Source: a virus. From it: DNA of 45,306 nucleotides. Numbering within the stretch: position 1 is the stretch's first letter; the number at the start of each line of letters is the position of its first letter. Shown here one piece after another: positions 2,700 to 28,710 of this stretch. The translations under genes and the position numbers were made by a program. The notes beneath the pieces were generated by a model, which was not told where the DNA came from, did no database searches, and saw only the letters and a list, made by a program, of their open reading frames with translations. Where the stretch lies: positions 1 to 45,306 of the IMG/VR virus record IMGVR_UViG_3300035670_000390, one strand, 5' to 3'.

Positions 2700-2725
2700 G
2701 TCGCGGGTTGAGCCTTGCTCCCCAA

Positions 2726-2760
2726 GGGGGAGGGACGGCCCCCCTCACTGTCCCTCCCCC
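2726..2760 (+). terminator. Strong hairpin terminator after the lysis operon
   Basis: GGGGGAGGGAC at 2726-2736 pairs perfectly with 2750-2760, an 11-bp GC-rich stem with a 13-base C-rich loop. A short TTT follows at 2766-2768. It separates the lysis genes from the promoter starting the next unit. The C-run loop resembles those of the hairpins near 26.35 kb and 37.13 kb. Confidence 0.75.
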
Positions 2761-2786
2761 GCCCCTTTACGTGACACGGACAATTC

Positions 2787-2880
2787 GGACATTTCGGGAA
2801 TCTTCCCATTCGTCTTGACAGGACGGGGGCGTGGCACTAACGTAGGGGGTGAGGGGTTGGGGAAAGTCCCCGACAGGAGG
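2787..2880 (+). promoter_or_regulatory. Promoter cassette A: upstream element, -35/-10, GAGGGG hairpin, SD
   Basis: GGACATTTCGGG starts at 2787, exactly 28 bp before the -35. The -35 is TTGACA 2815-2820, the spacer is 17 bp and contains GACGGGGGCGT, and the -10 is TAACGT 2838-2843. The leader has GAGGGG 2851-2856, a stem-loop (TTGGGGA 2857-2863 with TCCCCGA 2867-2873), and AGGAGG 2875-2880 seven bases before ATG 2888. The same arrangement recurs six more times in the window. Confidence 0.85.
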
Positions 2881-2887
2881 GCCAGAA

Positions 2888-3337
2888 ATGATGACCACAG
2901 AGCGTGTCGGATTCACTAAGAATCAAGAAGGCCACGTCGCTCCTTGCTACGGAGTTCATCACAAAGACGTTGCTGTGTTAGGTCACTGCGACGGCTGCGG
3001 TATGGAGGTAGCGAAGAGTGATGACGGTCGCATAATGACTGTGTACTACCGGGGAGACTGGTTCGCGCGGAAGGTAGCGTGCTGGGCTCCGAATCATGAG
3101 TGTGACCCGGCGCAAGCGGCTTCACATCAGGCCAAAGTTGTTGCCGAGATTGAAGCGGGAGAGATCATCAAGGGTCAGACCGTGGAGGTGGTTCGTGGTC
3201 GCAAAGTCCCGAAGGGCACAGCGGGAGAGATCGTGTGGGTCGGAGTGGATTCCTTCGGCAAGGCTCGTGTTGGTATCAAGACGGCAGACGGCGAGACGGT
3301 GTTCACCGCTCAATCAAACGTGGAGGTGCAGGCATGA
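2888..3337 (+). CDS. Hypothetical protein with Cys motif and KOW-like C-terminus
   Basis: 149 residues; start ATG 2888 (or 2891) chosen by the AGGAGG site. First gene after promoter A. The N-terminal half has C..C-type pairs (CDGCGMEV) and a later CWAPNHEC, possibly a metal site. The C-terminal 55 residues (KGQTVEVVRGRKVPKGTAGE) look like a KOW/SH3-type beta barrel. No function known. Confidence 0.7.
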   Translation: MMTTERVGFTKNQEGHVAPCYGVHHKDVAVLGHCDGCGMEVAKSDDGRIMTVYYRGDWFARKVACWAPNHECDPAQAASHQAKVVAEIEAGEIIKGQTVEVVRGRKVPKGTAGEIVWVGVDSFGKARVGIKTADGETVFTAQSNVEVQA

Positions 3338-3741
3338 TGTTCATGATCGCACCTGGAGCAAAGGCAACTCACTACGTTGGATCCGATTCGTACGCATCCG
3401 TGGTCAAAGATGTAGAGCGGTTCAAGTCCGGAGCACGTAAGGGCCAGATCAAAGCAATCGTGGCGTGCCACATTGATCTCGCAGAGGACGGCACGTTCAC
3501 GGAGCGTCCGCACATGGAGTGGGTCAAGGAGGGAGATGACTTCGTGCCAGTGCCCAAGTACGACCGTTTCCTGCCCGTAGTCCAGGGGCCGTGCCCCTAC
3601 TGCTCAACTCCCAGTTCGATCTGCTGGCACTGCAATCACGCTGGTGATGTCGGGTACTTCGAACGTTCTTCCGGTCGGGTCGCCTACTGGTCAAAGTTGG
3701 TCGTCGGCGAGGCTGTTGATTACCGGGATCCACACTTCTAG
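3334..3741 (+). CDS. Hypothetical protein with zinc-finger-like cysteines
   Basis: 135 residues from ATG 3334, overlapping the previous stop, with GGAGG upstream. Near residues 90-105 it has CPYCSTPSSICWHC, a four-cysteine zinc-binding pattern. The rest is soluble and unrecognised. Cotranscribed with the gene before it. Confidence 0.65.
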   Translation: MMFMIAPGAKATHYVGSDSYASVVKDVERFKSGARKGQIKAIVACHIDLAEDGTFTERPHMEWVKEGDDFVPVPKYDRFLPVVQGPCPYCSTPSSICWHCNHAGDVGYFERSSGRVAYWSKLVVGEAVDYRDPHF

Positions 3742-3764
3742 GAAACGTGCAGGGATCCACCTGC

Positions 3765-3791
3765 TACGATGTGAGTGGAGCGAGGGGCTCC
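3765..3791 (+). promoter_or_regulatory. Candidate weak promoter and GAGGGG hairpin leader
   Basis: A -10-like TACGAT lies at 3765-3770 without a clear -35. It is followed by GGAGC 3777-3781 and GCTCC 3787-3791, which pair around a loop containing GAGGGG (3782-3787). A second GAGGGG at 3799-3804 serves as the ribosome site for GTG 3808. The loop design matches the leaders at 25.29 kb and 38.07 kb. Confidence 0.4.
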
Positions 3792-3807
3792 AGATTGTGA
3801 GGGGATT

Positions 3808-4017
3808 GTGAAAGTTTTCAAGCGTCCGGCAGAGTTTCATCTGACCGACCGTAAAGCGCACGCGCAGGTGTGGATGGGTCACTCCTTGACCGCCTGCGGC
3901 AAGCATGTTCAGTTCACTGATGGACGGCTCATGTATGAGGGCAACAGCCCAACTGTGTTGGCACATCCGATCTGCTGCAAGGCATGTATCCGGAGTTTGA
4001 GCAAGGAGGCATCATGA
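3808..4017 (+). CDS. Small Cys-rich hypothetical protein
   Basis: 69 residues from GTG 3808. The sequence has TACGKH in the middle and HPICCKACIRSL near the C-terminus, so a zinc site of the form C...CC..C is plausible. No domain recognised. Its stop overlaps the next ATG (ATGA). Confidence 0.6.
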   Translation: MKVFKRPAEFHLTDRKAHAQVWMGHSLTACGKHVQFTDGRLMYEGNSPTVLAHPICCKACIRSLSKEAS

Positions 4018-4130
4018 GTAACACCGAACGTCTGTTGGCTGAGATGTTGTTGTGTGTGAAGGAGACCAAAGGCCGTGACGCGATGATCGCTGAACTGGCT
4101 CGCTTGGTGGAGCAGGAGCGGCGGTCATGA
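4014..4130 (+). CDS. Micropeptide (38 aa), helical
   Basis: ATG 4014 with AAGGAGG upstream; ATGA overlaps at both ends couple it to its neighbours. The peptide (MSNTERLLAEMLLCVKETKG, then a charged helix) looks like one amphipathic helix. Function unknown. Confidence 0.6.
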   Translation: MSNTERLLAEMLLCVKETKGRDAMIAELARLVEQERRS

Positions 4131-4462
4131 ACGTACAGACCAAGATTGCTGCTGCCTACATTGATCAGACACGTCCAGAGGATTCCTACTCGAAGATGGA
4201 TCCGGTTGCCTGTGTCTCGCAGATCGGCAAGATGAACGTTGCTGCGATCAGTGGCGGCAGGGTCTGTCACACCGATTACGGCGTTTATCTTCCCGTGAGC
4301 CGTGGGTATTGGGTGTCGGTTCACCTGGCATCTGATGACACGTACATTGTCAGACGGGTGATCTACCGTAATCACACTGGTAAGGTGAAGGAAGAGTGGC
4401 GCAACGTTTATGCTGACATGGTTGGCGAGATTGCGTATCAAGCATCGTTGTTCGATAACTGA
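4127..4462 (+). CDS. Hypothetical protein (111 aa)
   Basis: ATG 4127 overlaps the previous stop. A mixed alpha/beta soluble protein (MNVQTKIAAAYIDQTRPEDS at the start) with no recognised motif. It leads directly into the recombination pair. Confidence 0.6.
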   Translation: MNVQTKIAAAYIDQTRPEDSYSKMDPVACVSQIGKMNVAAISGGRVCHTDYGVYLPVSRGYWVSVHLASDDTYIVRRVIYRNHTGKVKEEWRNVYADMVGEIAYQASLFDN

Positions 4463-4476
4463 GGGAGTTGATTGTT

Positions 4477-5007
4477 GTGTCTGATGAACCGTTCAAGGTT
4501 GATTCGATTGAGAAGGCTGCGTGGGCGATGCGGAAGTATCGTCAGGCGGCGCAACGTAAGGAGCGGAACATTGAGTTGGCGACTGCCGAGCATGACCGTA
4601 TCCAGACATGGCTTGAATCTGCAAATAAGAAGCACGAGGACGCAATGGCATTCTTTGCTGGACATCTGGAGGCATTCGCTAGGGCTGAACGCTTAGAAGG
4701 CCGGAAATCAGTGTCTGTCCCTGACGGGGTAGTCAAGTCACGGGCCAAGGGTGTGTCGTTTGACGTGGACAAAGAAAGTTTCGTCAAGTGGGCACTGGAA
4801 GAGAATCCGGAACTGTTGCGAGTCTCGTATGCACCTGACATGACCATGATGAAGGAGTCCCTAGAAGTCGTCGGGCCGAATGTTGTGGATCCTCGTACGG
4901 GTGAGGCCGTTCCTGGTATCAGCGTGATACCGGAAAGCGTTTCGTTCACGATTGCTCCTGATCTTGACGCTGCGGATCTTGGGGAGGATGACGATGCTGA
5001 CGAGTGA
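4477..5007 (+). CDS. Gam/Gp157-like protein (host nuclease inhibitor family)
   Basis: 176 residues. The first two thirds are a long helical region (AAWAMRKYRQAAQRKERNIE, then HDRIQTWLES). It is followed by FFAGHLEAFARAERLEGRKS, a stretch typical of Mu Gam-like and Gp157-like proteins (a helix pair, then EGRKS..VPDG and a strand). Mu Gam protects DNA ends from RecBCD-type nucleases. The acidic tail is DLGEDDDADE. The gene overlaps the annealing protein by 14 bp, which supports a recombination role. Start GTG 4477 is chosen for GAGGGAG at 4461-4467; TTG 4468 is possible. Confidence 0.6.
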   Translation: MSDEPFKVDSIEKAAWAMRKYRQAAQRKERNIELATAEHDRIQTWLESANKKHEDAMAFFAGHLEAFARAERLEGRKSVSVPDGVVKSRAKGVSFDVDKESFVKWALEENPELLRVSYAPDMTMMKESLEVVGPNVVDPRTGEAVPGISVIPESVSFTIAPDLDAADLGEDDDADE

Positions 5008-5638
5008 GCAGATCCAAGAGTTGTTGAAGCCGCTTGACCGTTCACGGGTGAAGCAAGACGGCAAGGGTTTCAGTCACGTTGAGGCGTGGGATATCCGTAA
5101 GCGCATGAATCAGATCTTTGGTTTCGGTAACTGGAGTGCTGTGACTGATCAGATGAAACTGATCTACGAGCACGAGCGTGAGGGAGGCAAGCCGCGATAC
5201 GACATTGCCTATCGCGCACGTTGCACAGTGACGTTGCATGACACTGGAGTCTCGTATTCTGAGTGGGCTGCGGGTGACGCGAGCAACTACCCGTCACGAG
5301 GTGATGCTCATGATCAGGCAATCAAGACTGCTGAGTCACAAGCGTTCAAGCGAGCGTGCGTCAATCTAGGTGACCAGTTCGGACTATCGCTGTACAAGGA
5401 TGGGAGCCTGGAGGCAACTGTTGGTGAGGTCATCGGGCAGGTTCACGCCGATGCTGGGAACGTACAGGCATGGTCTGACACCCTGGAGGCTGTTGGATCC
5501 TGGGAGGCACTGGCAGTGCTCGCGGCGGAGATCGCTGGTGCTGACATCTCTCAAGCAGATAAGCAGCACCTACGTGGGATCTACGGTGCGGCTAGGACGC
5601 GCCTAGAAGCCCTACACGGCCCGGAAAGTGTGGGATAG
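4994..5638 (+). CDS. Rad52/Sak-type single-strand annealing protein
   Basis: 214 residues from ATG 4994, with GGGGAGG six bases upstream. It opens with the helix and SHVEAWDIRKRMNQIFGFGNW, then YRARCTVTLHDTG, then QAIKTAESQAFKRACVNLG and FGLSLY. That set is the hallmark of the Rad52/Rad22 family, including phage Sak-like recombinases. These form rings that anneal complementary single strands. The last 60 residues (after about 150) are a variable tail. Paired with the Gam-like gene, it forms a recombination module; no partner exonuclease is visible. Confidence 0.88.
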   Translation: MLTSEQIQELLKPLDRSRVKQDGKGFSHVEAWDIRKRMNQIFGFGNWSAVTDQMKLIYEHEREGGKPRYDIAYRARCTVTLHDTGVSYSEWAAGDASNYPSRGDAHDQAIKTAESQAFKRACVNLGDQFGLSLYKDGSLEATVGEVIGQVHADAGNVQAWSDTLEAVGSWEALAVLAAEIAGADISQADKQHLRGIYGAARTRLEALHGPESVG

Positions 5639-5677
5639 GGTTACCGGACTCGGTTGGCCCTTTGTGGCCTTAGAAAC

Positions 5678-5691
5678 GCTCTGAGGGGAGC
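5678..5691 (+). promoter_or_regulatory. RBS hairpin with GAGGGG in the loop
   Basis: GCTC 5678-5681 pairs with GAGC 5688-5691 around TGAGGG, so the GAGGGG that serves as ribosome site for GTG 5695 sits in a small hairpin. The same sequence (GCTCTGAGGGGAGC) occurs at 15231-15244 before another gene. A nearby GTGGCCTTAGAA is shared with position 35390. Confidence 0.4.
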
Positions 5692-5694
5692 AAG

Positions 5695-6399
5695 GTGAGC
5701 ATTCATGTGCTGGCCCCGATCCTGAGGGATCGTACGTATGACGGCAAGAAGAAACTGATCCTGTTGGCTATCGCCGACATGGTGGACGCTGACGGTGTTG
5801 GGTTTGCTTCGTATCGGCAGATCCAACAGGTCACGGATGTGAGCACGACGTATCTGACTCAGTGCATCCGTGAGTTCGTTGAAGATGGACGGCTAGAGAT
5901 TCTCCGTAAGGGCACTGGCCCTGGCACTGCAACGGTGTATCGGGTGTTGTTGTCCTGGAGCACTCAACTATCCAACTCAGTTGCACAGTCAGATGAGGAG
6001 CAACTATCCAACTCAGTTGCACCGAACTATCCAACTCTGACGCAGAACTATCCAACTCCAGCCTCTAATCCTCCGTCCTATACCTCCTTAGATACATCCT
6101 CCGTCCATGTTACGTCGCCTGACGGCTCCGCCCCGAATGCTGGGCAGGTCATGAAGGCGTATTTGGAGCAGGTGAATGTTCGACCACCTGAACGTGTTGT
6201 TGGTCATCTGGCACGAGAGACGCGGCTGTTGATTGAGCAAGGCTTCAACCCTGACGTGGTGTTGGCGGCTTTGTTGGCGATCAATGAGAAGGGGCTGCAT
6301 CCTTCAACTTTGGCAAGCGAAGTGAATGCGTTGTTGAACTCACGCCCGAAGCATGGTGGAGCGGGCCTGTATGTGGATGTTGCGCAGGGTCGGGCATGA
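5695..6399 (+). CDS. Replication initiator-like wHTH protein (lambda O-type layout)
   Basis: 234 residues from GTG 5695. Residues about 5-85 form a winged-helix domain (LILLAIADMVDADGVGFASY, then VSTTYLTQCIREFVEDGRLE and a wing at VYRVLL). Residues 90-145 are a low-complexity linker (QLSNSV repeated, then NYPT repeated). Residues 150-234 are a helical C-terminal domain. This matches lambda O/DnaT-like replisome organisers: DNA-binding head, linker encoded by origin iterons, helicase-loading tail. The DNA of the linker contains four AACTATCCAACTC repeats. The next gene is loader-like, which supports the assignment. Confidence 0.65.
   Translation: MSIHVLAPILRDRTYDGKKKLILLAIADMVDADGVGFASYRQIQQVTDVSTTYLTQCIREFVEDGRLEILRKGTGPGTATVYRVLLSWSTQLSNSVAQSDEEQLSNSVAPNYPTLTQNYPTPASNPPSYTSLDTSSVHVTSPDGSAPNAGQVMKAYLEQVNVRPPERVVGHLARETRLLIEQGFNPDVVLAALLAINEKGLHPSTLASEVNALLNSRPKHGGAGLYVDVAQGRA
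5966..6058 (+). repeat. Four iterons inside the initiator gene, candidate replication origin
   Basis: AACTATCCAACTC occurs at 5966-5978, 6002-6014, 6025-6037 and 6046-6058. The first two copies extend into AGTTGCAC, making a CAACT-C-AGTTG palindrome within them. Spacing is 36, 23 and 21 bp, so the last two are about two helical turns apart. A pyrimidine-rich, lower-GC stretch follows at about 6060-6110. In lambda, iterons lie inside gene O in the same place. Confidence 0.65.
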
Positions 6400-6728
6400 C
6401 CCCTCAGGAGGCAGCGTTGGTGTTGGCAAAGATCAGCACCTTGGATTCGCGGATCAATGCGGCGAGCCCTGAGACTGCTAGGGCGAGGGCTGAGGCATGG
6501 GCTGAGGTGCTTGACCGTAGCATGACAATGGAGTGGGCTATTGCTCATGTCTTGGATCACTACCGGACGAAACGTGATGTGGTTATGCCAGCGGATCTGA
6601 ATGTTGCGTGGCGAGGCGAACGGGACAGGCAGTTGGGCAGCATGACGATGTTGGCGTTGGACTCTGTTCCTGGAGTTCCGATGCCTGAATCTGTGAAGCG
6701 GTTGTGGCTTGAGATACTGGACAAGTGA
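6396..6728 (+). CDS. Possible helicase-loader-like protein
   Basis: 110 residues; ATG 6396 overlaps the initiator stop (ATGA). It is all helical: TPQEAALVLAKISTLDSRIN, then ARAEAWAEVLDRSMTMEWAI, then DHYRTKRDVVMPADL. This resembles small actinophage proteins that follow the initiator and are suspected replisome/helicase-loader components (AWAEVL..HY....MPADL). The assignment rests on pattern and context. Confidence 0.5.
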   Translation: MTPQEAALVLAKISTLDSRINAASPETARARAEAWAEVLDRSMTMEWAIAHVLDHYRTKRDVVMPADLNVAWRGERDRQLGSMTMLALDSVPGVPMPESVKRLWLEILDK

Positions 6729-6832
6729 TCGAATGCGATATGTGCGATGAGCGTTTTGAGCCTGTCCGTTTTCGGTGGAAATGTCCGCATTGTGGTTTCA
6801 AGGCTTCGTGTTGTGAGGGTGAACCTCAGTGA
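6725..6832 (+). CDS. Zinc-ribbon micropeptide (35 aa)
   Basis: GTG 6725 overlaps the previous stop. The peptide has CDMC, CPHC and CC (VIECDMCDERFE, later KCPHCGFKASCC), a compact zinc ribbon. Coupled to the genes on both sides. Function unknown. Confidence 0.6.
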   Translation: MIECDMCDERFEPVRFRWKCPHCGFKASCCEGEPQ

Positions 6833-6921
6833 AAGGCGACTGGAAGTGCAACGTGTGTGGTGAGACTGGCAAAGGTGGAGCGGCAGGTTTCTACGCTCAT
6901 TACGCTAGGCATGATTCGTGA
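6829..6921 (+). CDS. C2H2-like zinc finger micropeptide (30 aa)
   Basis: GTG 6829 overlaps the stop before it. It has CNVC followed by HYARH near the C-terminus, a C..C...H...H arrangement. Its TGA overlaps the GTG of the HNH gene. Very short, supported by tight coupling and the cysteine pattern. Confidence 0.5.
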   Translation: MKGDWKCNVCGETGKGGAAGFYAHYARHDS

Positions 6922-7256
6922 GGATGCCGCAGGGCACGGTAGCGGCTGTGCATAACAGGTCAGGGCATCGGTGTGAGCGTTGTGGAGCGAGTGAATCGTT
7001 AGCCTGGAGCCTGCATCACCGTAGGCCGCGTGGCATGGGTGGATCAAAAGATCCGGCAACTAATAGCCCGTCGAATGTGTTGTTGTTGTGTGGCTCTGGG
7101 ACTACTGGCTGTCATGGTTGGGTGGAGTCTCATCGGGCTGAGGCGTACGACCTGGGACTGTTAGTGCATAAGTGGCAGAGACCTGATGATGTTCCGGCAA
7201 AGTTGTGGCATGGAACGTTCATGTTGGATGAGGAGGGCGGTATGCAAGCATGTTAG
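6918..7256 (+). CDS. HNH endonuclease
   Basis: 112 residues from GTG 6918. CERCG near residue 18, LHHRRPRGMGGS with the catalytic His pair, N..LLLCG and CHGWVES form a complete HNH fold with structural zinc cysteines. Stand-alone HNH proteins often sit by terminase or replication genes; some assist packaging. Whether this one is a free-standing nuclease or a terminase helper cannot be read here; the terminase lies 3.5 kb away. Confidence 0.88.
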   Translation: MRMPQGTVAAVHNRSGHRCERCGASESLAWSLHHRRPRGMGGSKDPATNSPSNVLLLCGSGTTGCHGWVESHRAEAYDLGLLVHKWQRPDDVPAKLWHGTFMLDEEGGMQAC

Positions 7257-8385: not shown

Positions 8386-8994
8386 ATGGGAGAGAAATTC
8401 AACGCGATGAATGTGGAATCCGTGAAAATGGATTCGCTAAAAATTGATGATCGCAACGCCCGTAAAGGCAACATCTCCGCAATCGTTGAGAGCCTGGAAG
8501 AGTTCGGGCAGCACCGTCCAATCGTGGCGCAGCGTAAGACGAAAAAGATCATTGCGGGTAATCACATGTTCCGTGCGGCTCAAGCACTGGGCTGGGATAC
8601 GATCAACGTTTATTGGGTAGATGACGATGACACCACAGCGATTCGACGTAGCCTCGCGGATAACGCGACAGGTAATCTCGCTACGTGGGATGAGGATGTA
8701 CTTGCAGAACTGTTGTCAGAAACTGGATCAGTTCCGGGTATTGATGAGTCGTTGTTGCAGAAGTTGACAGAAGTCCTAGACAAAGAAGTTCACGAGAAGC
8801 CGATCTTTCCGATTGTTGCCCGTGTGAATGAGAAATACGATTTCGTAATCGTTGTGGCGAAGAGTGAAATTGACACTGTGTGGATGTACGAGAAGTTCGG
8901 ACTGAGAACAGAACAATCGTACAAAGGGCCAAAGACTGCACGTAGTCACGTTGTGACTGTTGAGAGATTGCAGGAGTTATGGAAGAACTCGTAA
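8386..8994 (+). CDS. ParB-like nuclease-fold protein 2 with extra C-terminal domain
   Basis: 202 residues from ATG 8386, with GGAGG at ideal spacing. Residues about 10-105 are ParB-like: VKMDSLKIDDRNARKGN, FGQHRPIVAQ, GNHMFRAAQALGWDTI, SLADNATGNLATWDEDVL. Residues about 135-202 form a separate domain (YDFVIVVAKSEIDTVWMYEK, then SHVVTVERLQELW) that I associate with ParB proteins in phage base-modification operons. It overlaps the glycosyltransferase by 16 bp. Paralogous to the gene upstream in the ParB core. Confidence 0.75.
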   Translation: MGEKFNAMNVESVKMDSLKIDDRNARKGNISAIVESLEEFGQHRPIVAQRKTKKIIAGNHMFRAAQALGWDTINVYWVDDDDTTAIRRSLADNATGNLATWDEDVLAELLSETGSVPGIDESLLQKLTEVLDKEVHEKPIFPIVARVNEKYDFVIVVAKSEIDTVWMYEKFGLRTEQSYKGPKTARSHVVTVERLQELWKNS

Positions 8995-9719
8995 AGGTCA
9001 TATGTCCGTCGTCTAAGCGTGCGGACAGGGTGATGACTAAGGATGTTGTTCCGAATATGGCTATTTGTGTGCCTAAGTCCGAAGAGGCGGAATACAGAGA
9101 GCATAATCCTGACAACGAAATAATCGTTCATCCCGATGAGATCAAGGGCTTGCCTTTGAAGCGTCAATGGATCTATGAGACGTTCGGCGACATTTTCATG
9201 CTGGATGATGACATCGCTTACATGAGGGATTGGACGTGTCCTCCTGGGAAGAATGAAACGCATCCCCCTGAGGTGGCATACGAGTTGATTCAACGTCTCG
9301 CATTCATGGCGAAAGAGATGGGTGCGTACCTGTTTGGTTTCAATCATCTCGTGCGGCCCATGTTCGTCCATCCCCAACAGCCGTACACGTTGACGGGTTT
9401 CATCCCTGGTCATTCGATGGGCCTGTTCAAAGGCTCGAAACTGTATTGGCATAAACGCGCTACGACTGTGTGCGACTACTGGATTTCATCGTTGAATGCA
9501 TACCACCACCGTTACGTTTTGAAGGATCTGCATTACGGTTTCCTCCAGACAAAGACGTTCAAAGGTTCGGGAGGTCAGGCACAGCATCGCAATATGCAAG
9601 TTGAGGTGGATGCGACTAATTTTTTGAAGGAGTATTTCGGTGACGCTATCCGTAATAAGGGAGAAACTGCGGTGAAGAGATCTCACGAAGCAATGCGCTA
9701 CCTAGCGTTGCCGTACTGA
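8979..9719 (+). CDS. TET-associated-type glycosyltransferase (TAGT-like)
   Basis: 246 residues. It starts VICPSSKRADRVMTKDVVPN, continues EIIVHPDEIKGLPLKRQWIY and FGDIFMLDDDIAYMRDW, a GT-A-like fold with the DDD at residues 76-78 as metal/donor site. These motifs match the TET-associated glycosyltransferase family, which in phages is linked to sugar addition on oxidised methylated bases. Two ParB-like genes directly upstream support a modification operon. The oxygenase and methylase partners expected for that pathway are not in the window. It could act on another substrate. Confidence 0.72.
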   Translation: MEELVKVICPSSKRADRVMTKDVVPNMAICVPKSEEAEYREHNPDNEIIVHPDEIKGLPLKRQWIYETFGDIFMLDDDIAYMRDWTCPPGKNETHPPEVAYELIQRLAFMAKEMGAYLFGFNHLVRPMFVHPQQPYTLTGFIPGHSMGLFKGSKLYWHKRATTVCDYWISSLNAYHHRYVLKDLHYGFLQTKTFKGSGGQAQHRNMQVEVDATNFLKEYFGDAIRNKGETAVKRSHEAMRYLALPY

Positions 9720-10579: not shown

Positions 10580-11041
10580 ATGGCTAAGACCAAACTAACC
10601 CCCGACCGTCAAGCCCGAATCACCGAAGCGTTAGCGCAAGGCAACTACATCGAAACAGCCGCACGCTACTCAGGCGTATCACCACAAGTGTTCTACAAGT
10701 GGATGAGCAGAGGAAATGAAGAACGCCAACGCATAGGAGACGGCGCAGATCCAACACCGGGGGAGGAGATCTACGTGGAGTTCGTGGAGGCAGTAGAAAA
10801 GGCCCGGTCGCAAGCAGAAATGCGGAACGTCGGCCTGATACAGAAAGCCGCCGTGGACGGCACATGGCAAGCCGCAGCCTGGTATCTGGAGAGGTCGTAT
10901 CCGAAGCGGTGGGGCCGCAGTGACAGGGTGGAGCACACGGGTGCTGATGGTGGCCCGGTAGAGGTGTCTGTGAGTATGGATGACCTGGAGGCTAAGGTCA
11001 GCGAAGTGCTCCGTCATAGGGGCGTAGATCAGGAGTCGTAG
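10580..11041 (+). CDS. terS: Terminase small subunit
   Basis: 153 residues. Residues about 8-42 form a helix-turn-helix (RITEALAQGNYIETAARYSG, then SPQVFYKWMSRG), the usual DNA-recognition head of phage small terminases. A long helix follows (EFVEAVEKARSQAEMRNVGL) for oligomerisation, then AAAWYLERSYPKRWG, a very common motif in this family. It recognises the packaging site and stimulates the large subunit, which starts at its stop codon. Confidence 0.88.
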   Translation: MAKTKLTPDRQARITEALAQGNYIETAARYSGVSPQVFYKWMSRGNEERQRIGDGADPTPGEEIYVEFVEAVEKARSQAEMRNVGLIQKAAVDGTWQAAAWYLERSYPKRWGRSDRVEHTGADGGPVEVSVSMDDLEAKVSEVLRHRGVDQES

Positions 11042-12588
11042 TGTCCCTGGTGGATGAGATTGTTCGGGCTAACCCGGAAGATCGGGCACGCCTGTTCTCG
11101 TCCCTTGACCAGCGGGAACGTCAGGCTGTGTTGCGGGCTCTTGACGATGAGATCTCTAATCCTTGGGCGAAGTACCGTGAGGATCCTGTTGGTTTCGTGA
11201 CTGGGGCTCTAGGCGAACATGTCTGGTCGAAGCAGGTAGAGATCCTGGAATCGCTGTTGACGAACCGTAGGACTGCTGTTCCGGCATGTCACGCTCCTGG
11301 CAAATCTCATATCGCGGCTCGTGCTATCGCATGGTGGGTGGCAGTTCATGATCCCGCTAAGACGAGGGTAGTGACTACGGCGAATACGTACCGTCAGGTG
11401 AAGGGCATTCTTTGGCCTCACATCCGTCGCGTGGTGAATCTTCACGGGCTGCCTGGTGAAGTGTTTACGACTGAGTGGAAGATTGACAACGTGGTTGTGG
11501 CGGACGGCTTCTCACCGTCGGATCACAATGAGACTGCTGTGCAGGGTATCCACGCTGAGAATCTGCTCGTGGTGGTGGATGAGGCTGGGGGTATTTCGAA
11601 CACGATCGGGCAGGCACTTGAGGCGTTGATGACTGGCGGCAACACCCGGTTGTTGCTGCTGGGTAACCCTCCAACGGACAACATGGGCTCGTGGTTCGAA
11701 CGGGCCTGCAACAGTGACCTGTTCAATGTGATCCCGATTTCGGCGTATGACACTCCTAACTTCACTGGCGAACCTGTTGGCCCGTGGGCTCGTAACCTCG
11801 TGGATCAGACGTGGGTGGATGACGTGATCCGCTCGTTCGGTGAGGAGTCGGCTTTCGTTCAGGCTCGTGTGTGGGCGAGATTCCCCAGGACTACGGAGAA
11901 CGCGGTGATCCCGATTTCGTGGGTGGATCAGGCTCGTACGTGGCAGGCTCCGGAAGGTGGAATCCGGTTGGGTGTGGACGTTGCTGCTGATGGTGGCGAT
12001 GAGTTCGTGATCGCTAAGGCTGATGGAATGCACGTCAAGGTAGTGCATGGATCCCGTGGCAATAAGAATCCGGTGGAAGTGGCAGGCACTGTGCTGCGGC
12101 ACATCCTGGAGGCAGAGAAGATCCACGAGGAGCGTCGGATCCCGGATCGTGTGCGGGTGAAGATTGACTCCATCGGTGTCGGCTGGGGTATCTGTGGATT
12201 GCTGGAAGAGTGGGGCAAGGAGGGCCGTCACCACTCGGACGTGATCGCGGTGAACGTGGCGCAGTCACCTCATGACAAAGAGAAGTTCGCCAATCAGCGG
12301 GCTGAAATGTGGTGGGCAATGCGGGAACTGTTGCAACCGGATGAGCACGGCGAGCAGACCGTATCGCTAGGGATAGACCACAAAGAGGTTGCTCAGTTGA
12401 CTGCTCCTTCGTACAAGTCCAACTCGTCAGGCCGCATACAGATCGAATCGAAGGCTGACATGTCTGCGCGAGGTATCGGATCTCCTGACCGGGCTGAGGC
12501 TCTGCTGCTGGCTGTGTTTGAACCTCCCCGGCACGTGATTCCGGATGTGGCTCCGTTGTCGTTACCTGGCACGAATAGTTGGATCTAG
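11041..12588 (+). CDS. terL: Terminase large subunit
   Basis: 515 residues. ATPase: Walker A-like CHAPGKS at 83-89 (deviant, APGKS instead of GxxxxGKS) and Walker B LLVVVDE at 175-181, then the coupling motif LLLLGNP at 204-210. Nuclease (RNase H fold): D313 in LGVDVAADGGDEF, D375 in VKIDSIGVGWG and a C-terminal Asp in SPDRAEALLLA. It pumps and cuts DNA at the portal. GTG 11041 overlaps the small-subunit stop. The portal is unusually distant, at 18.7 kb. Confidence 0.96.
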   Translation: MSLVDEIVRANPEDRARLFSSLDQRERQAVLRALDDEISNPWAKYREDPVGFVTGALGEHVWSKQVEILESLLTNRRTAVPACHAPGKSHIAARAIAWWVAVHDPAKTRVVTTANTYRQVKGILWPHIRRVVNLHGLPGEVFTTEWKIDNVVVADGFSPSDHNETAVQGIHAENLLVVVDEAGGISNTIGQALEALMTGGNTRLLLLGNPPTDNMGSWFERACNSDLFNVIPISAYDTPNFTGEPVGPWARNLVDQTWVDDVIRSFGEESAFVQARVWARFPRTTENAVIPISWVDQARTWQAPEGGIRLGVDVAADGGDEFVIAKADGMHVKVVHGSRGNKNPVEVAGTVLRHILEAEKIHEERRIPDRVRVKIDSIGVGWGICGLLEEWGKEGRHHSDVIAVNVAQSPHDKEKFANQRAEMWWAMRELLQPDEHGEQTVSLGIDHKEVAQLTAPSYKSNSSGRIQIESKADMSARGIGSPDRAEALLLAVFEPPRHVIPDVAPLSLPGTNSWI

Positions 12589-18547: not shown

Positions 18548-18685
18548 ATGGACTTGACTCCCCTTGACGCTGCCGCAGTGACGGTTCACGAGTTCTATAT
18601 GGCGTTGCGTAGGGCAGGTTTCTCTGATGGGCAGGCTATGTACCTGGTAGGGCAAAGGATGATCGCAGATGCACGATCACAGTGA
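18548..18685 (+). CDS. Small hypothetical protein before the portal (45 aa)
   Basis: ATG 18548. Helical (MDLTPLDAAAVTVHEFYMAL); overlaps the portal gene by 17 bp. Probably couples or starts expression of the head operon. No family recognised. Confidence 0.55.
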   Translation: MDLTPLDAAAVTVHEFYMALRRAGFSDGQAMYLVGQRMIADARSQ

Positions 18686-19925
18686 CCTTCACGAGTTAGG
18701 GTCGTCCGGCCTACGCCGTAGCGGGGGAACGATCACGGAAGAGTTTCTTCCGAATCTGCAAGGTGTCAAGGGCTTCAAGGTTTACCGTGAGATGTCCGAC
18801 AACGATCCTGTTGTTGGGGCAATGCTGTTTGCGTTCGACAAAATCATTACGCGACTGGACTGGCACATCTCAGGGGAAGATGAGCGTTACGTCAAGTTCG
18901 TTCAAGAGTGTCTTGATGACATGAGTGATTCGTGGGACGCAACACTGTCCAACATTTTGTCCATGCTGGTGTACGGCTGGAGTTTCCACGAGATTGTTTA
19001 CAAGATCCGTGACGGGCAGAATCCGGAACAGAGGTATCACTCCAGGTACTCTGACGGTCGTATCGGTTGGCGTAAGTGGGCTGTGCGGGCGCAGGAGACG
19101 TTGCAGGAGTGGATCATTGATCCGCATGGCGGCATTCAAGGGATGGTGCAGATTGACCCGTCTGGTGGCGGGCTTCATCGGATCCCGATTGACAAAGCAC
19201 TGTTGTTCCGTACGACCACTAACCGCAATAACCCTGAGGGAAGATCTCTCCTCCGTAACGCTTACCGTCCCTGGTATTACAAGCATCGCATCGAAGAGAT
19301 CGAAGCAATCGGTATTGAGCGGGATCTTGCTGGACTGCCTATGGCGTATGTCCCACCGGAGTATCTGTCGTCCACGGCAACGTCAGCGCAGAAGGCGGTT
19401 CTGAACGCGATCACCACAATCGTGCAGAACGTGAAGCGGAATGAGCAAGAAGGCATCGTTTTCCCTGCTGCATACGATGAGAACGGCAACCGCGTATTCG
19501 ACCTGACCCTTCTGTCTGCGTCGGGCTCTCGCCAGTTCGATACGGGATCAGTGATTCAACGGTATGACCAGCGAATCGCAATGTCCCTGTTGTCTGACTT
19601 CTTGTTGCTTGGATCTGACCGTGTGGGCTCGTTTGCTCTTGGAGCGAGCAAGATTGATCTGTGGACTATGGCTGTTGACTCCATAGCGAAGAGCATCAGC
19701 GAGGTCGTGAATCAGTATGCGATCCCTCGTTTGTTGAAGTTGAACGGCATGAGGTTGACGAATATGCCGTATCTGACGTACGGGCAGGTCGCAAGCGTGG
19801 ATATCACTGAGGTGGCTAACTTCGTGGAGAAGTTGACTGGTGTTGGAGCGATTGTTCCTGACCGTGAACTGGAAACACATCTGCGCACTTTGGCTGATCT
19901 CCCCGACGTTCAACCGTTGGAGTAG
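18669..19925 (+). CDS. Portal protein (DUF935/Mu gp29-like)
   Basis: 418 residues. VYREMSDNDPVVGAMLFAFD followed by WHISGEDERY, then the stem region (YGWSFHEIVYK) and the C-terminal GTQ-like part fit the DUF935/SPP1-type portal family. LLFRTTTNRNNPEGRSLLRN is a typical portal motif. Twelve copies form the DNA gate and the docking site for terminase. The next gene is MuF, as expected for this portal type. Confidence 0.92.
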   Translation: MHDHSDLHELGSSGLRRSGGTITEEFLPNLQGVKGFKVYREMSDNDPVVGAMLFAFDKIITRLDWHISGEDERYVKFVQECLDDMSDSWDATLSNILSMLVYGWSFHEIVYKIRDGQNPEQRYHSRYSDGRIGWRKWAVRAQETLQEWIIDPHGGIQGMVQIDPSGGGLHRIPIDKALLFRTTTNRNNPEGRSLLRNAYRPWYYKHRIEEIEAIGIERDLAGLPMAYVPPEYLSSTATSAQKAVLNAITTIVQNVKRNEQEGIVFPAAYDENGNRVFDLTLLSASGSRQFDTGSVIQRYDQRIAMSLLSDFLLLGSDRVGSFALGASKIDLWTMAVDSIAKSISEVVNQYAIPRLLKLNGMRLTNMPYLTYGQVASVDITEVANFVEKLTGVGAIVPDRELETHLRTLADLPDVQPLE

Positions 19926-19927
19926 CC

Positions 19928-21670
19928 GTGTTGATCGTGAAGGCGCGTCGCCGCACGAATCCGGTTCACATCGCTGGCCCAACAGAGTCAGGCAAGCGGA
20001 TCATGCGTGTCCTCTCGTCGGCTATGAACAGCATCAGAGATCAGGTCGCTCGTAATGAGGGCGTGTATCTTGACGCGATACAACACAGGTCATCTCAGGC
20101 TGTCGCTGACATGGTTCCCACGCAACCGTGGTTCGAAGCGCAGGAGAAGATTGAGCAGGAGTTGTACGTTGAGGTGCTGGACGGCGGCTCCAGGGTCAAG
20201 TTGCCTGCTATCCGTAAAGAGGTGCTTCTCTTCTCGTTCGACCGTTCCCGGCCTGAGGCGGCAGATTGGGCGAGGAAAGAAGCGGCTCAACTGGTCACGA
20301 ATGTTGTTGAGGATCAGAGGACTGTTATCCGCGGCATGGTCGCTCAGTCCCTGGAAGGTGGCATGGCCCCACGGGACGTTGCACGTGGCCTCAGGAATGT
20401 CATAGGGCTCACTCAGGGGCAAGAAGGCTGGGTGTCTAATCACTACAACCGGGCTGTTGATTCGGGTCTCCAACGCGGTCTATCTGTTGCGAGGGCTACG
20501 GAGTTGGCTCAGAGATCCACGGACAGATACCACGACCGGGTGTTCCGTTATCGGACGGAGACGATAGCCCGGACGGAGATCATGCGAGCCACTCATGAGG
20601 GTCGTCGTGAAGCGTGGGCTCAGGGCATTGAAGGTGGATGGATAAGTGTCCTAGCGGAGAAGGAGTGGAGTGCTGAGGCTGTTGCCTGTCAGATCTGCTC
20701 ACCGATGGACGGCATCATCGTGCCGATCAATGGCTCGTTCAGCATTGGAGATCCTCCTGCTCACCCGAACTGTCGTTGCGATGTTCTCCTGGTGGATAGG
20801 CCAGACAGGGATCTAGCGGCATTGCAGCCCGCGCAGATTGATGAACTGATTGAAGAGATCGTCGGCACTGGCATTCGTCCTGGCATGGGTGACGGCACTG
20901 TCATCCCGGAGGCTGACTTCATTGCGATGCAGCAGTCGTCGGCTGGCCCGTACATGACTGGTCGGGCTCCCGATGGTGCTCCGTTGTGGGATCCGGTACG
21001 AGCACGACTGCATGATGAGATTGTTGACCGTTTCGTTTCACGAGTTCCTCGTAGCGAGAAGCCGACGTACAACATGATGGGTGGCGGGCCTGCATCGGGG
21101 AAGTCAACGATGGAGAAGAAAGTGTTTGGCGAGGCGCGTGGTCAGGCTGTGAAGATTGATCCTGATGAGATCAAGAAACTGCTACCGGAGTATCGGGACA
21201 TGGTTGCTGCTGGTGATGACAATGCGGCAGCGTTTGTGCATGAGGAGTCCTCGTATTTGGGTAAGAGGATTTTGAAGGCAGCGCAGGAACGCCGTCAGGA
21301 CATTGTTTTCGATGGTGTGGGTGACGGTAACCCTGATAGTGTCCTTAGTCGTATTGCTACGGCTCGCGCTAACGGCTACGAGGTCAAGGGCTACTACGTG
21401 ACGATCCCCACGGATGAGGCAGTTGCACGTGCTACTGCGCGGGCTGCTAGAACTGGACGTGTAGTACCGGAGTCAACGATCAGGTCTCAGCACGCTGCGG
21501 TGTCACGAGTGTTGCCGGAGATTGCTGAGGAGTTTGATGAGGTGCAGTTATTCGACAACACGACAACGTTGAAGTTGATCGGTGAGGGAAGTAGAGGGAG
21601 ATTCAAAGTGTTAGACGATGAAGCGTACGACAGTTTCCTTGGGAAGGCGGCTGACAATGGCATCCGCTAA
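19928..21670 (+). CDS. MuF head morphogenesis protein fused to zeta-toxin-like kinase
   Basis: 580 residues from GTG 19928. Residues about 125-290 are a MuF domain (AQSLEGGMAPRDVARGLRNV, ETIARTEIMRATHEGRR, and the Cys/His site CQICSPMDG with HPNCRCDVL). Residues about 355-545 match zeta toxin/PezT kinases: YNMMGGGPASGKST (Walker A 386-394), IDPDEIKKLLPEY with catalytic-type Asp411/Asp413, HEESSYLGKRIL, DIVFDGVGDG, and RTGRVVPE. Zeta enzymes phosphorylate UDP-N-acetylglucosamine and block wall synthesis. MuF proteins can be packaged, so the toxin could be delivered with the DNA or act in the host. The small gene overlapping its 3' end may be an antidote. Confidence 0.85.
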   Translation: MLIVKARRRTNPVHIAGPTESGKRIMRVLSSAMNSIRDQVARNEGVYLDAIQHRSSQAVADMVPTQPWFEAQEKIEQELYVEVLDGGSRVKLPAIRKEVLLFSFDRSRPEAADWARKEAAQLVTNVVEDQRTVIRGMVAQSLEGGMAPRDVARGLRNVIGLTQGQEGWVSNHYNRAVDSGLQRGLSVARATELAQRSTDRYHDRVFRYRTETIARTEIMRATHEGRREAWAQGIEGGWISVLAEKEWSAEAVACQICSPMDGIIVPINGSFSIGDPPAHPNCRCDVLLVDRPDRDLAALQPAQIDELIEEIVGTGIRPGMGDGTVIPEADFIAMQQSSAGPYMTGRAPDGAPLWDPVRARLHDEIVDRFVSRVPRSEKPTYNMMGGGPASGKSTMEKKVFGEARGQAVKIDPDEIKKLLPEYRDMVAAGDDNAAAFVHEESSYLGKRILKAAQERRQDIVFDGVGDGNPDSVLSRIATARANGYEVKGYYVTIPTDEAVARATARAARTGRVVPESTIRSQHAAVSRVLPEIAEEFDEVQLFDNTTTLKLIGEGSRGRFKVLDDEAYDSFLGKAADNGIR

Positions 21671-21875
21671 TGATGTTTCCCGGATCACGGCTGAGATCGC
21701 TAACGGAGTGCTGAAGCAAGACTCCACCGTCACGTTGACTGATGAACTGTCAGCATTGTGGGATCAGATAGAAATGGAGATCGCGGAGATCAGAGCCCGT
21801 GGGCTAATTGTTGAGATCCCTGGCGAGATGCCAGACGTTCAACTACTTTCACCCGACTCCATCGTTGAGCCGTAG
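21657..21875 (+). CDS. Small protein overlapping MuF-zeta, candidate antitoxin
   Basis: 72 residues from ATG 21657 after GGGAAGGCGG, 14 bp inside the upstream gene. Acidic: SRITAEIANGVLKQDSTVTL, then LSALWDQIEMEIAEIRARGL. It is about the size of epsilon antitoxins (90 aa, helical) but I cannot align it to them. Position is the main argument for an antidote; it could equally be a head accessory protein. Confidence 0.5.
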   Translation: MASANDVSRITAEIANGVLKQDSTVTLTDELSALWDQIEMEIAEIRARGLIVEIPGEMPDVQLLSPDSIVEP

Positions 21876-21886: not shown

Positions 21887-23830
21887 ATGGATCTGCTTGA
21901 ACGCATCAATGCCCTCACGGACGATCAACTCAGAATGATCGCTGACCGTGATGATGCTTCCGGCGTGCTCGCTTCTTACCGTTTAGCGGAACTCAGAGGG
22001 CTACCAGCACCAGAGCGCAGTGTCGTGATCATGGGTGACGGGTATGCGATTGTTGCTCAGGACGGCAAGATTTCGAAGATCCCGACAGAGGGTGTAGCGA
22101 AGATCATCCGTCAAGAGGGCAGCCAATACTGTGTGTATTCGGAGGACGGTTCTCAGTCGTTCGGCTGCTATGACAGCATGGAGCAGGCTCAGGAGCGTTT
22201 GCGGCAGATTCACTCGTTCGGCAATGAGGCAGAGAAGGCTGTCCATGAGGGCTCATTCGTTTCTTGGAATTCCAGTGGCGGTCGTGCGCGGGGCCGTGTT
22301 GAGCATGTGATGACTGAGGGAACTCTCGGAGTCCCTGGCTCGTCGTTCAGCATTGACGCTACTCAAGAAGATCCTGCTGTGTTGATCCGGATTTGGCGTG
22401 AGGGCTCAGAGGGCTGGCAGGAGACAGAGACTCTCGTTGGTCACCGGATGAGCACGTTGACGCAGATTGAACCGTTGAACCGTAGCGCGGTCGGGAAGGC
22501 GACTAAGCGTGAAGATGGTGAGGACTTCCCAGCGGAAGCGTTCGCATACGTGCCGGATCCAGAGCGAGTCTCTACGTGGAAACTGCGACTGTGGGATTCG
22601 TTGTCGGAGAAAGAAACTAAGGCTCAGGTGGCTCGCGCTGTTCAAGCGTTGAGCCCATCAGGTTTCCGTGGCAACCGTGTTCAGATCCCGGCTGCTGATC
22701 TTCCAGGGGTCAAGCGGAAGGTGCTGGCAGCGTGGCGGAAGGTCAATGAACCTGATGCTGAGATCCCGGCAGTGTTGAAAGCGATGCTGGTGAAGGAGAC
22801 GTTCAAGCCCCCTCAGGGAGTCCAGGACGCTGCGGAGCGTGCTCTTGAATGGATCAGGGAAGGCCACGCAGGTTCGGGCTTTACAGACGTTGGTAGGGCT
22901 CGTGCAGCGCAACTGGCACGGGGCGACAATGTTTCGGAGCAGACGATCCGCCGCATGGCCTCGTACTTTGCGCGTCACGAGGTGGATTCACAGGCTGAGG
23001 GCTGGAGTAGCGGCGAGGATGGTTTCCCGTCACCAGGCCGTGTCGCTTGGGATGCTTGGGGTGGTGATCCTGGCAGGACTTGGGCGAATAGCATCGTTGA
23101 CCGTCTTGAGAAGGATGGTGTCGCTCTGACACCTCGGCAGAACCTGTTGTACGAGTCGTATGAGCAGGTGGCGGAAGTGTTTGGTCTGTTCGGCCCGGAT
23201 GACGGCCCGGACGGTGCTCACTACATGGAGGAGAATCCGTTCAACCGGAACGGGATCAACTGTGCTAACTGTGTGTTCTACCAGGGTGGAGGCGGCTGCG
23301 AGATCCTCAACATTGAAGTGAACCCTGACGCTGTTTGTAAGTTTTGGATCATCCCGAATGACCGTCTCGTCAAGGCAATGGACGTGGATAAGGCAGCGTT
23401 CGTGCGGAAGGCAGATGAGTCCAGGTTCACGCTTGGCCCGTTGTATGTCCCGGATTTCATGGACGCTCACGGCGAGTGGACATCAGCGGATGAGTTGCAG
23501 CCTGCCGTCTGGGAGTGGGTGAAGTCAGGTGATCGTCGGATCTTCTTGCAGCATGACCGTGAGGTTGAGGCTGGTGAGTGGGTCGAAGTGATGACGATGC
23601 CGCAGGAGTGGACTGTCACGATGCGCGACGCGGCGGGTAACGCGCTGGGGCAGGTCACCTATCCACGTAACACGGTGTTCCTGGGCGTGCAGTGGAATGA
23701 GAAGGCTTGGCAAGACGTAAAGGCAGGCCGTTTGCGCGGCTACTCCATTGGCGGTTTCAGTGACCGGATCCTCGCTGATCTTCCCGACTCTGCAATGCGG
23801 GAAGGGTTAGAGATCCCGACTGGCGATTGA
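21887..23830 (+). CDS. Multi-domain protein with C-terminal XkdF-like prohead protease
   Basis: 647 residues. In order: an N-terminal part with YCVYSEDGSQSFGCYDSMEQ (81-100); a DUF2945/tudor-like beta domain (120-197, GSFVSWNSSGGRARGRVEHV); a small DUF6582-like helical part (218-286); a helical domain (308-410, QTIRRMASYFARHEVDSQAE); a four-cysteine site (C459, C462, C471, C484); and an XkdF-type serine protease domain (515-627). In the last, H556 (LQHDREVEAG) and S620 (RGYSIGG) are the probable catalytic residues. The protease would mature the scaffold/capsid. The stack of accessory domains is unusually long for a prohead protease. Confidence 0.78.
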   Translation: MDLLERINALTDDQLRMIADRDDASGVLASYRLAELRGLPAPERSVVIMGDGYAIVAQDGKISKIPTEGVAKIIRQEGSQYCVYSEDGSQSFGCYDSMEQAQERLRQIHSFGNEAEKAVHEGSFVSWNSSGGRARGRVEHVMTEGTLGVPGSSFSIDATQEDPAVLIRIWREGSEGWQETETLVGHRMSTLTQIEPLNRSAVGKATKREDGEDFPAEAFAYVPDPERVSTWKLRLWDSLSEKETKAQVARAVQALSPSGFRGNRVQIPAADLPGVKRKVLAAWRKVNEPDAEIPAVLKAMLVKETFKPPQGVQDAAERALEWIREGHAGSGFTDVGRARAAQLARGDNVSEQTIRRMASYFARHEVDSQAEGWSSGEDGFPSPGRVAWDAWGGDPGRTWANSIVDRLEKDGVALTPRQNLLYESYEQVAEVFGLFGPDDGPDGAHYMEENPFNRNGINCANCVFYQGGGGCEILNIEVNPDAVCKFWIIPNDRLVKAMDVDKAAFVRKADESRFTLGPLYVPDFMDAHGEWTSADELQPAVWEWVKSGDRRIFLQHDREVEAGEWVEVMTMPQEWTVTMRDAAGNALGQVTYPRNTVFLGVQWNEKAWQDVKAGRLRGYSIGGFSDRILADLPDSAMREGLEIPTGD

Positions 23831-27732: not shown

Positions 27733-28710
27733 ATGCCACAGCCCACTCAGTCTCAGGTGCATGTTGACGCAATCCTGACCAACATCTCTGTTGCTTACAT
27801 GCAGCGTGCAGAGAACTTCATTGCCGACAAGGTGTTCCCGGTTGTGCCCGTGGACAAGCAGTCGGACAAGTATTTCGTGTACACCAAGAATGACTGGTTC
27901 CGTGATGAGGCGCAGGTTCGCGCTGACGGCACTGAGTCTGTTGGTAGCGGATACAACATCACTTCGGACACCTACTACGCTGATGTGTGGGCGATCCACA
28001 AGGACGTGGGCGATCAGACCCGCGCCAATGCGGATGCTCCGATCAACGTTGACCGTGAGGCAGCGGAGTTCGTTACTCAGCGTCTGTTGCTCCGTCGTGA
28101 GATCCAGTTCATGAATGACTTCATGGCTGACGGCGTGTGGGGCACTAGCGCGTCTGGTGTTTCCTCCTCACCGTCCACCGATGAGTTCATCCAGTGGAGT
28201 GACTACACCAATTCGGATCCGATTGAGGACATCGAAGCGGGCAAGCAGGAGATCCTGTCCACCACTGGCATGGAAGCCAACACTCTGGTGCTCGGCTATG
28301 AGGTGTTCCGTCAACTCAAGAACCACCCGGATCTCGTTGACCGCATCAAGTACACCTCCTCACAGACGATCACTGAGGACATGCTGGCCCGCATGTTCGA
28401 CATTGACCGCGTGCTGGTGTCCAAGAGCGTCAAGGCCACGAACAAGGAAGGCGCAACCGCTGCCTACTCCTTCACCACTGGCAAGACCGCACTGCTGGCT
28501 CACGTTGCCCCGCAGCCTGGTCTGCTCACTCCTTCCGCTGGCTACATGTTCCAGTGGACAGGCGTGTCGGGTGGCCTTGGAGCGACCATTGGAACGTCGT
28601 CTTTCCGTCTGGAGAGCCTCCGCGCTACCCGGATTGAGTCGGAAATCGCGTTCGACAATAAGGTCGTTGCGACTGATCTCGGCTACCTATTCAAGGATGC
28701 CGTGGCCTAG
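27733..28710 (+). CDS. Major capsid protein
   Basis: 325 residues from ATG 27733 with AAGGAGTAAAG upstream. NISVAYMQRAENFIADKVFP at the start, RREIQFMNDFMADGVWG in the middle and EANTLVLGYEVFRQLKNHPD form a pattern shared with a large group of siphovirus capsid proteins of the HK97 fold. Context (scaffold, decoration, capsid, connectors) makes the call firm. The long N-terminal delta domain of HK97 is missing; the separate scaffold replaces it. Confidence 0.88.
   Translation: MPQPTQSQVHVDAILTNISVAYMQRAENFIADKVFPVVPVDKQSDKYFVYTKNDWFRDEAQVRADGTESVGSGYNITSDTYYADVWAIHKDVGDQTRANADAPINVDREAAEFVTQRLLLRREIQFMNDFMADGVWGTSASGVSSSPSTDEFIQWSDYTNSDPIEDIEAGKQEILSTTGMEANTLVLGYEVFRQLKNHPDLVDRIKYTSSQTITEDMLARMFDIDRVLVSKSVKATNKEGATAAYSFTTGKTALLAHVAPQPGLLTPSAGYMFQWTGVSGGLGATIGTSSFRLESLRATRIESEIAFDNKVVATDLGYLFKDAVA

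What the first reader, a model, noticed from the sequence alone, without database searches (positions are those of the whole stretch)
19928..21875. MuF protein carrying a zeta-toxin kinase, with an overlapping candidate antidote
The C-terminal 200 residues keep the whole zeta core (GGPASGKST, IDPDE, TGR). MuF polymorphic toxins are known, but a zeta kinase would target UDP-GlcNAc, the wall precursor. If packaged, it could act on the cell receiving the phage; if free, it would weaken the wall during lysis. The 72-aa gene starts 14 bp inside the toxin gene, as antidotes often do, yet does not look like epsilon.
Basis: partly seen in the sequence, partly recalled or inferred. Interest (0 to 1): 0.85.

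Follow-up and report, generated by a model that had tools for sequence, protein, structure and literature searches.

The report
Phage-head kinase with conserved small partner
A phage head protein carries a built-in zeta-type kinase, and the tiny gene overlapping its end belongs to a previously unrecognised family that accompanies this kind of kinase in very different phages, probably as its antidote; in one cultured relative both proteins have been detected in the virus particle.

Summary
ORF 19928-21670 is a MuF minor-head protein with a C-terminal zeta-fold kinase (Pfam 117 bits; AlphaFold model closest to zeta toxin and AvrRxo1), followed by a 72-aa ORF overlapping it by 14 nt. MuF-zeta fusions are already published (Iyer 2017), so the fusion itself is not new. 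New here: (1) The 72-aa protein belongs to an unnamed family present in 15 of 19 clusters of closely related phage zeta kinases, in none of 23 more distant clusters, and in none of 75 MuF loci without zeta. It follows the kinase onto unrelated head-protein scaffolds, and in three loci it is fused to the head protease. (2) ATP and phosphoryl-transfer residues are invariant, but the UDP-GlcNAc contacts Glu100, Arg120 and Thr128 are replaced, and Thr118 is Val here, a change that detoxifies PezT. The assumed wall-precursor target is therefore unsupported. (3) In published P-SS2 virion proteomics the homologous MuF-zeta protein (96.5 peptides) and the homologous small protein (2.5 peptides) were both found in particles. 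Best reading: a MuF polymorphic-toxin variant whose kinase, acting on a still unknown (perhaps nucleotide-like) substrate, is carried in the virion with a cognate inhibitor. Toxicity, substrate and inhibition are all untested.

The parts
18669..19925 (+). portal protein (context)
   Evidence: Pfam Portal_Mu 114.9 bits; PHROG portal E 2e-80
19928..21670 (+). MuF-kinase fusion protein, 580 aa
   Evidence: ORF; Pfam Phage_Mu_F and Zeta_toxin
20453..20785 (+). Phage_Mu_F domain (residues 176-286), ending in the CxxC...PPAHPNCRC motif
   Evidence: alignment with Salgado and PSS2
20960..21667 (+). zeta-fold kinase domain, residues 345-580; Pfam match 21044-21577
   Evidence: AlphaFold model of residues 326-580, mean pLDDT 87.5; PDB matches 1gvn E 8e-13 and 4z8v E 2e-11
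21080..21103 (+). Walker A GGGPASGK; lysine is residue 392
   Evidence: Lys invariant in 22 of 22 relatives
21155..21172 (+). IDPDEI; Asp 413 matches the catalytic base Asp67 of zeta
   Evidence: invariant in 22 of 22
21236..21253 (+). VHEESS motif: His and second Glu invariant, first Glu and both Ser nearly so
21311..21325 (+). DGVGD: Val 464 stands where zeta has Thr118, Asp 466 where zeta has Arg120
   Evidence: PezT Thr-to-Val variant non-toxic
21657..21875 (+). 72-aa partner protein, candidate antidote; overlaps the fusion gene by 14 nt
   Evidence: family A2/A4; hold-out test; controls
21887..23830 (+). 647-aa head protein with TUDOR-like module and C-terminal XkdF-type protease (23399-23770); in relatives its pieces are fused to the kinase (L052, L053, L079) and to the small partner
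27733..28710 (+). major capsid protein (context)
   Evidence: PHROG E 5.6e-102

Best explanation
This is a MuF polymorphic-toxin variant. The MuF trunk puts the protein into the phage head (inferred; shown by mass spectrometry only for the P-SS2 homologue). The C-terminal zeta-fold kinase is the effector, carried in the particle and presumably released with the DNA into the next cell (inferred), where it phosphorylates a small molecule that is probably not UDP-GlcNAc; a nucleotide such as NAD is my leading guess. The 72-aa protein is its cognate inhibitor. It is made by translational coupling as the kinase is finished, holds the kinase silent while heads are built, and in at least one relative travels in the particle. 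Shown here: the architecture, the conserved kinase-partner pairing, the change of scaffold, the conserved phosphoryl-transfer residues and the loss of UNAG contacts. Inferred: toxicity, inhibition, injection, substrate.
For: Kinase: (Lys46, Asp67, Glu116-to-Asp and Arg158 equivalents invariant in 22 of 22). Partner: same small-protein family in 14 of 18 related kinase clusters besides the window, 0 of 23 distant clusters, 0 of 75 zeta-less MuF loci; each clade recovered by a model built without it; kinase and partner distances correlate, Mantel r 0.86, p 1e-4. Scaffold change: MuF trunk in the window, L010, L014, L017, L025, L029; TUDOR-type trunk in L052, L053, L079 with the partner fused to the XkdF protease. 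Swapped tips: the closest MuF trunks either end without a tip and without a small gene (L095, L102) or bear other tips (L094, L096, L103). Packaging: P-SS2 gp030 96.5 and gp033 2.5 peptides per replicate in virions (PMC2784084). Precedents: MuF toxins neutralised by adjacent small proteins, Bxa and Apk2; 89% of MuF toxin genes followed by a small ORF against 25.5% of short muf genes.
Against: No functional test of any member. Four related kinase clusters (L026, L051, L056, L150) show no partner by the profile, and in the marine clade the partner is on the other strand 1.1-2.8 kb away. Partner in virions and partner fused to the head protease would also fit an assembly or cargo-docking role. 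The AlphaFold model of the partner (mean pLDDT 77, two helices) has no significant structural match, so no inhibitor fold is recognised. The window's Val for Thr could mean a weakened enzyme.
Confidence: 0.6

Rival explanations
1. Classic reading: a true UDP-GlcNAc kinase that poisons wall synthesis, easing DNA entry or lysis (Iyer 2017 and the first reader).
For: Pfam Zeta_toxin 117 bits; best PDB match is zeta; explicitly proposed for MuF-zeta fusions.
Against: Glu100 to Lys, Arg120 to Asp, Thr128 to Arg, Thr118 to Val in this protein; Arg120 is kept in 0 of 22 relatives. Related domains in head modules of haloarchaeal viruses.
Confidence: 0.12
2. The small protein is not an antidote but a head-assembly, chaperone or cargo-docking factor that positions the kinase and the maturation protease inside the prohead.
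For: Fused to the XkdF-type protease in L052, L053, L079; its homologue gp033 found in P-SS2 virions.
Against: Absent from all 75 zeta-less MuF loci, including trunks 47-52% identical to this one; tracks the kinase, not the scaffold.
Confidence: 0.2
3. The kinase is a helper for the phage rather than a toxin: a packaged 5'-hydroxyl RNA or nucleotide kinase that repairs damage or neutralises a host signal on entry.
For: Weaker structural and profile matches to polynucleotide kinases; a RNA-ligase/2H-type neighbour in the related phage Salgado.
Against: Zeta match far stronger (117 against 31 bits for AAA_33); does not explain an obligate small partner; alternative tips on the same trunk look like ADP-ribosyltransferases (my reading of motifs).
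Confidence: 0.12

Closest known systems
MuF polymorphic toxins (Jamet 2017, PMC5576092; Bxa and Apk2, PMC11699363)
   Same: muf gene directly after the portal gene; conserved trunk, exchangeable C-terminal effector, small ORF directly downstream
   Different: The word zeta does not occur in the main text of Jamet 2017. Jamet found toxin tips only in temperate phages; no integrase was found in this window and the kinase-partner pair was absent from 296 sampled bacterial genomes of one phylum
MuF fused to zeta-toxin-like kinase in polyvalent proteins (Iyer 2017, PMC5512222)
   Same: the same domain fusion is stated there, with a cell-wall role proposed
   Different: in the passages read, no partner gene is described and the substrate was assumed; the UNAG contacts are lost here
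epsilon/zeta and PezAT toxin-antitoxin systems
   Same: kinase fold, Walker A, catalytic Asp, phosphate-binding Arg
   Different: partner gene downstream, unrelated in sequence to any catalogued family; UNAG contacts not kept; fused to a head protein
AvrRxo1 with Arc1 (zeta-fold NAD 3'-kinase and its inhibitor)
   Same: structural match about as good as zeta; profile match covering 3-225 of 230 positions; inhibitor gene downstream; ATP but not UNAG residues kept
   Different: no detected similarity of the 72-aa family to any PDB chain, Arc1 included; NAD use is untested here
Cyanophage P-SS2 gp030 and gp033
   Same: MuF plus zeta region 40% identical over 255 aa, and a member of the same small-protein family
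   Different: kinase is internal in a 1499-aa protein and the small gene lies about 420 nt downstream

Membership tests
MuF minor head protein | Phage_Mu_F domain, gene directly after portal | tested here: met
   35.0 bits over cut-off 29.6; portal stop 2 nt upstream
MuF polymorphic toxin | exchangeable C-terminal domain on a conserved trunk | tested here: met
   trunks 38-52% identical with no tip or with other tips
MuF polymorphic toxin | small cognate ORF next to the toxin gene | tested here: met
   conserved family
MuF polymorphic toxin | toxicity, and protection by the small ORF | not testable with these tools
   needs expression tests
MuF polymorphic toxin | carried by temperate phages | tested here: inconclusive
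   no integrase in 61 scanned window ORFs at E 1e-4, but the record may be a fragment
Zeta_toxin Pfam family (PF06414) | profile match over cut-off | tested here: met
   116.9 against 22.3 bits
UDP-GlcNAc kinase (functional zeta/PezT) | ATP and phosphoryl-transfer residues | tested here: met
   Lys46, Asp67, Arg158 and Arg171 equivalents present
UDP-GlcNAc kinase (functional zeta/PezT) | UNAG contacts Glu100, Thr118, Arg120, Thr128 | tested here: not met
   Lys, Val, Asp, Arg in this protein; contacts from PMC3062530
Epsilon or PezA antitoxin | sequence family membership of the 72-aa protein | tested here: not met
   no Pfam, NCBIfam, PADLOC or PDB match of any of 19 members
AvrRxo1-type NAD kinase | NAD phosphorylation | not testable with these tools
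   structural and profile similarity only

The most novel reading that the evidence does not exclude
A toxin-antitoxin pair that is itself a virion component: a zeta-fold kinase with a new (non-UDP-GlcNAc, possibly NAD or other nucleotide) substrate is built into the head together with a new family of inhibitor and released into the next host, and the pair hops between unrelated head proteins of phages with very different hosts.
Probability: 0.33. Interest if true: 0.78.

Novelty: new variant of a known kind. Interest (0 to 1): 0.6.

Why it matters
Few packaged phage-head effectors have been studied in detail. Here a conserved kinase-partner pair, widespread in environmental phages and already seen by mass spectrometry in one cultured cyanophage virion, gives a concrete case in which a packaged enzyme, its inhibitor and its unknown substrate can all be tested. 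It also warns against naming every zeta-fold domain a cell-wall toxin.

Tried and rejected
Direct searches with the full fusion protein and with the 72-aa protein found only one identical contig, and tblastn of the 72-aa protein in phages found nothing; only the kinase-based search followed by a profile of neighbouring ORFs exposed the family. Rejected: 72-aa ORF as chance overlap; as a general MuF-locus gene; as epsilon. A 99-aa ORF behind the MuF-zeta gene of L150 looks alike by eye but does not pass the profile and was not counted. Search of 296 bacterial genomes of one phylum for both families found none; without a positive control there it is weak evidence. Structure search with the small-protein model gave nothing significant.

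Full report
What is there. The window is a 45.3 kb environmental virus record. It has the head and tail gene order of a tailed phage: TerL 11041-12588, portal 18669-19925, then the 580-aa protein 19928-21670, a 72-aa ORF 21657-21875, a 647-aa protein with an XkdF-type protease domain, major capsid 27733-28710 and tape measure 40053-43724. Two WhiB genes and Arthrobacter-phage relatives of portal, TerL, MCP and MuF point to an actinobacterial host (inference). The 580-aa protein has a Phage_Mu_F domain and a C-terminal Zeta_toxin domain, both over Pfam cut-offs. The AlphaFold model of the C-terminal 255 residues has mean pLDDT 87.5; its best structural matches are the zeta toxin (E 8e-13) and AvrRxo1 (E 2e-11), with polynucleotide kinases at about 1e-5.

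The 72-aa ORF is a real gene of an unnamed family. It has no match in Pfam, PHROGs, NCBIfam, PADLOC or PDB that could be believed, nor do 18 relatives. I found the relatives by collecting 80 viral loci with a related kinase and searching their six-frame ORFs with a profile that started from small ORFs seen next to the kinase. Every significant hit lies near the kinase gene, one per locus: overlapping its 3' end (window, L010, L013, L014, L016, L017, L022), 16-520 nt downstream (L015, L018, L020, L023, L024, L025, P-SS2), on the opposite strand 1.1-2.8 kb away (marine clade, L029-L045 and others), or fused to the N-terminus of the XkdF-type protease (L052, L053, L079). Models built without a clade recover at least one member of that clade above 2000 shuffles in all nine hold-outs; the window protein scores 41.6 bits against a best decoy of 9.3; L013, L024, L052 and L079 on their own do not beat the best decoy and rest on their clade mates L016 and L053 and on position.

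The small gene tracks the kinase. At 80% kinase identity, 14 of 18 clusters with a strong match to the family profile (E below 1e-60) have the partner, 15 of 19 with the window; none of 23 more distant zeta clusters has it. Among 80 loci fetched by the MuF trunk alone, 75 have no zeta domain and none of these has the partner. The profile was partly built from the first set, so that set is not independent, but the 75 controls are. Kinase and partner distances correlate over 16 loci (Mantel r 0.86, p 1e-4), as expected of joint inheritance.

The pair changes scaffold and the trunk changes tip. In L052, L053 and L079, whose capsid proteins are close to the window's, the kinase sits not on MuF but on a trunk homologous to part of the window's 647-aa protein, and the partner is joined to the protease half. 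In L026 the kinase is joined to the protease itself and no partner was found. Conversely, MuF trunks 43-52% identical to the window's end without a tip and run straight into the 647-aa homologue (L095, L102), or bear other tips that I read as ADP-ribosyltransferase-like (L094, L096, L099), sometimes with a different small ORF. This is the pattern by which Jamet and colleagues defined MuF polymorphic toxins.

Substrate. In the zeta-UNAG structure, Asp67 is the proposed base and Thr118, Arg120, Thr128 and Glu100 contact UDP-GlcNAc; a Thr-to-Val change made PezT non-toxic (PMC3062530). Transferring these positions through the profile alignment: Lys46, Asp67, Glu116-to-Asp and Arg158 are invariant in 22 relatives and Arg171 is kept in 19; Glu100 is Lys in 19 of 22, Arg120 is Asp or Asn in 21 of 22, Thr128 is Lys or Arg in 21 of 22; Thr118 is Thr in 20 and Val in two, one of them the window. 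Alignment in the Glu100 and Thr128 helices is less certain than in the motifs. The same situation, ATP residues kept and UNAG residues lost, was reported for AvrRxo1, which turned out to phosphorylate NAD. Related domains also lie in the head modules of haloarchaeal tailed viruses, next to a gpF gene. I therefore regard UDP-GlcNAc as unlikely and the substrate as open.

Packaging. Published mass spectrometry of P-SS2 virions lists ORF 030, the 1500-aa protein with MuF and this kinase domain, at 96.5 peptides on average and ORF 033 at 2.5 (PMC2784084). ORF 030 was then called major capsid protein and ORF 033 an unknown structural protein. By coordinates ORF 033 is the P-SS2 member of the small family. 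The summary does not show where in ORF 030 the peptides lie, and 2.5 peptides is a low count, though above the 0.5 seen for TerL.

Known and new. The MuF-zeta fusion is not new: Iyer and colleagues state it and propose wall weakening. Small immunity genes beside MuF toxins are known for Bxa and Apk2. New, as far as the tools show, are the partner family, its strict link to this kinase branch, its presence with the kinase in a virion, the scaffold change including fusion to the head protease, and the loss of the UNAG pocket. I class it as a new variant of a known kind. Toxicity, inhibition, injection and substrate remain untested.

Noticed in passing
L052, L053, L079, L103, L105 (head-module proteins): A repeated 16-residue motif, KHLxGQHDQxSHGxWA, sits between domains of head proteins, often just before an enzymatic module; 19 matches of its core against 0 in shuffled ORFs, and no paper in the library contains it. 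Candidate protease site or capsid cargo tag. Not in the window.
   Followed up: partly
L015/L089 (Myxococcales MAG contig that is also a viral contig), ORF 1904-7108: A 1734-aa MuF protein carries two tandem copies of the kinase domain.
   Followed up: no
L007 15001-15438, Halovirus HCTV-5 gp114: A zeta plus ParB protein lies in the head module of archaeal tailed viruses beside gpF and an ADP-ribosyltransferase gene, where a murein precursor cannot be the target.
   Followed up: partly
P-SS2 gp030 (L004 6855-11354): GenBank annotates it as head morphogenesis and the 2009 paper as major capsid protein; it is a MuF, zeta and probably ADP-ribosyltransferase multidomain protein (ART by eye).
   Followed up: partly
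window 8979-9719: TET-associated glycosyltransferase (TAGT) / glucosyltransferase-like gene, suggesting modified bases in the phage DNA.
   Followed up: no
L096 5779-6009, L103 5503-5703: Other MuF tips (ADP-ribosyltransferase-like by eye) are followed by different small ORFs of 76 and 66 aa, possible cognate inhibitors.
   Followed up: no
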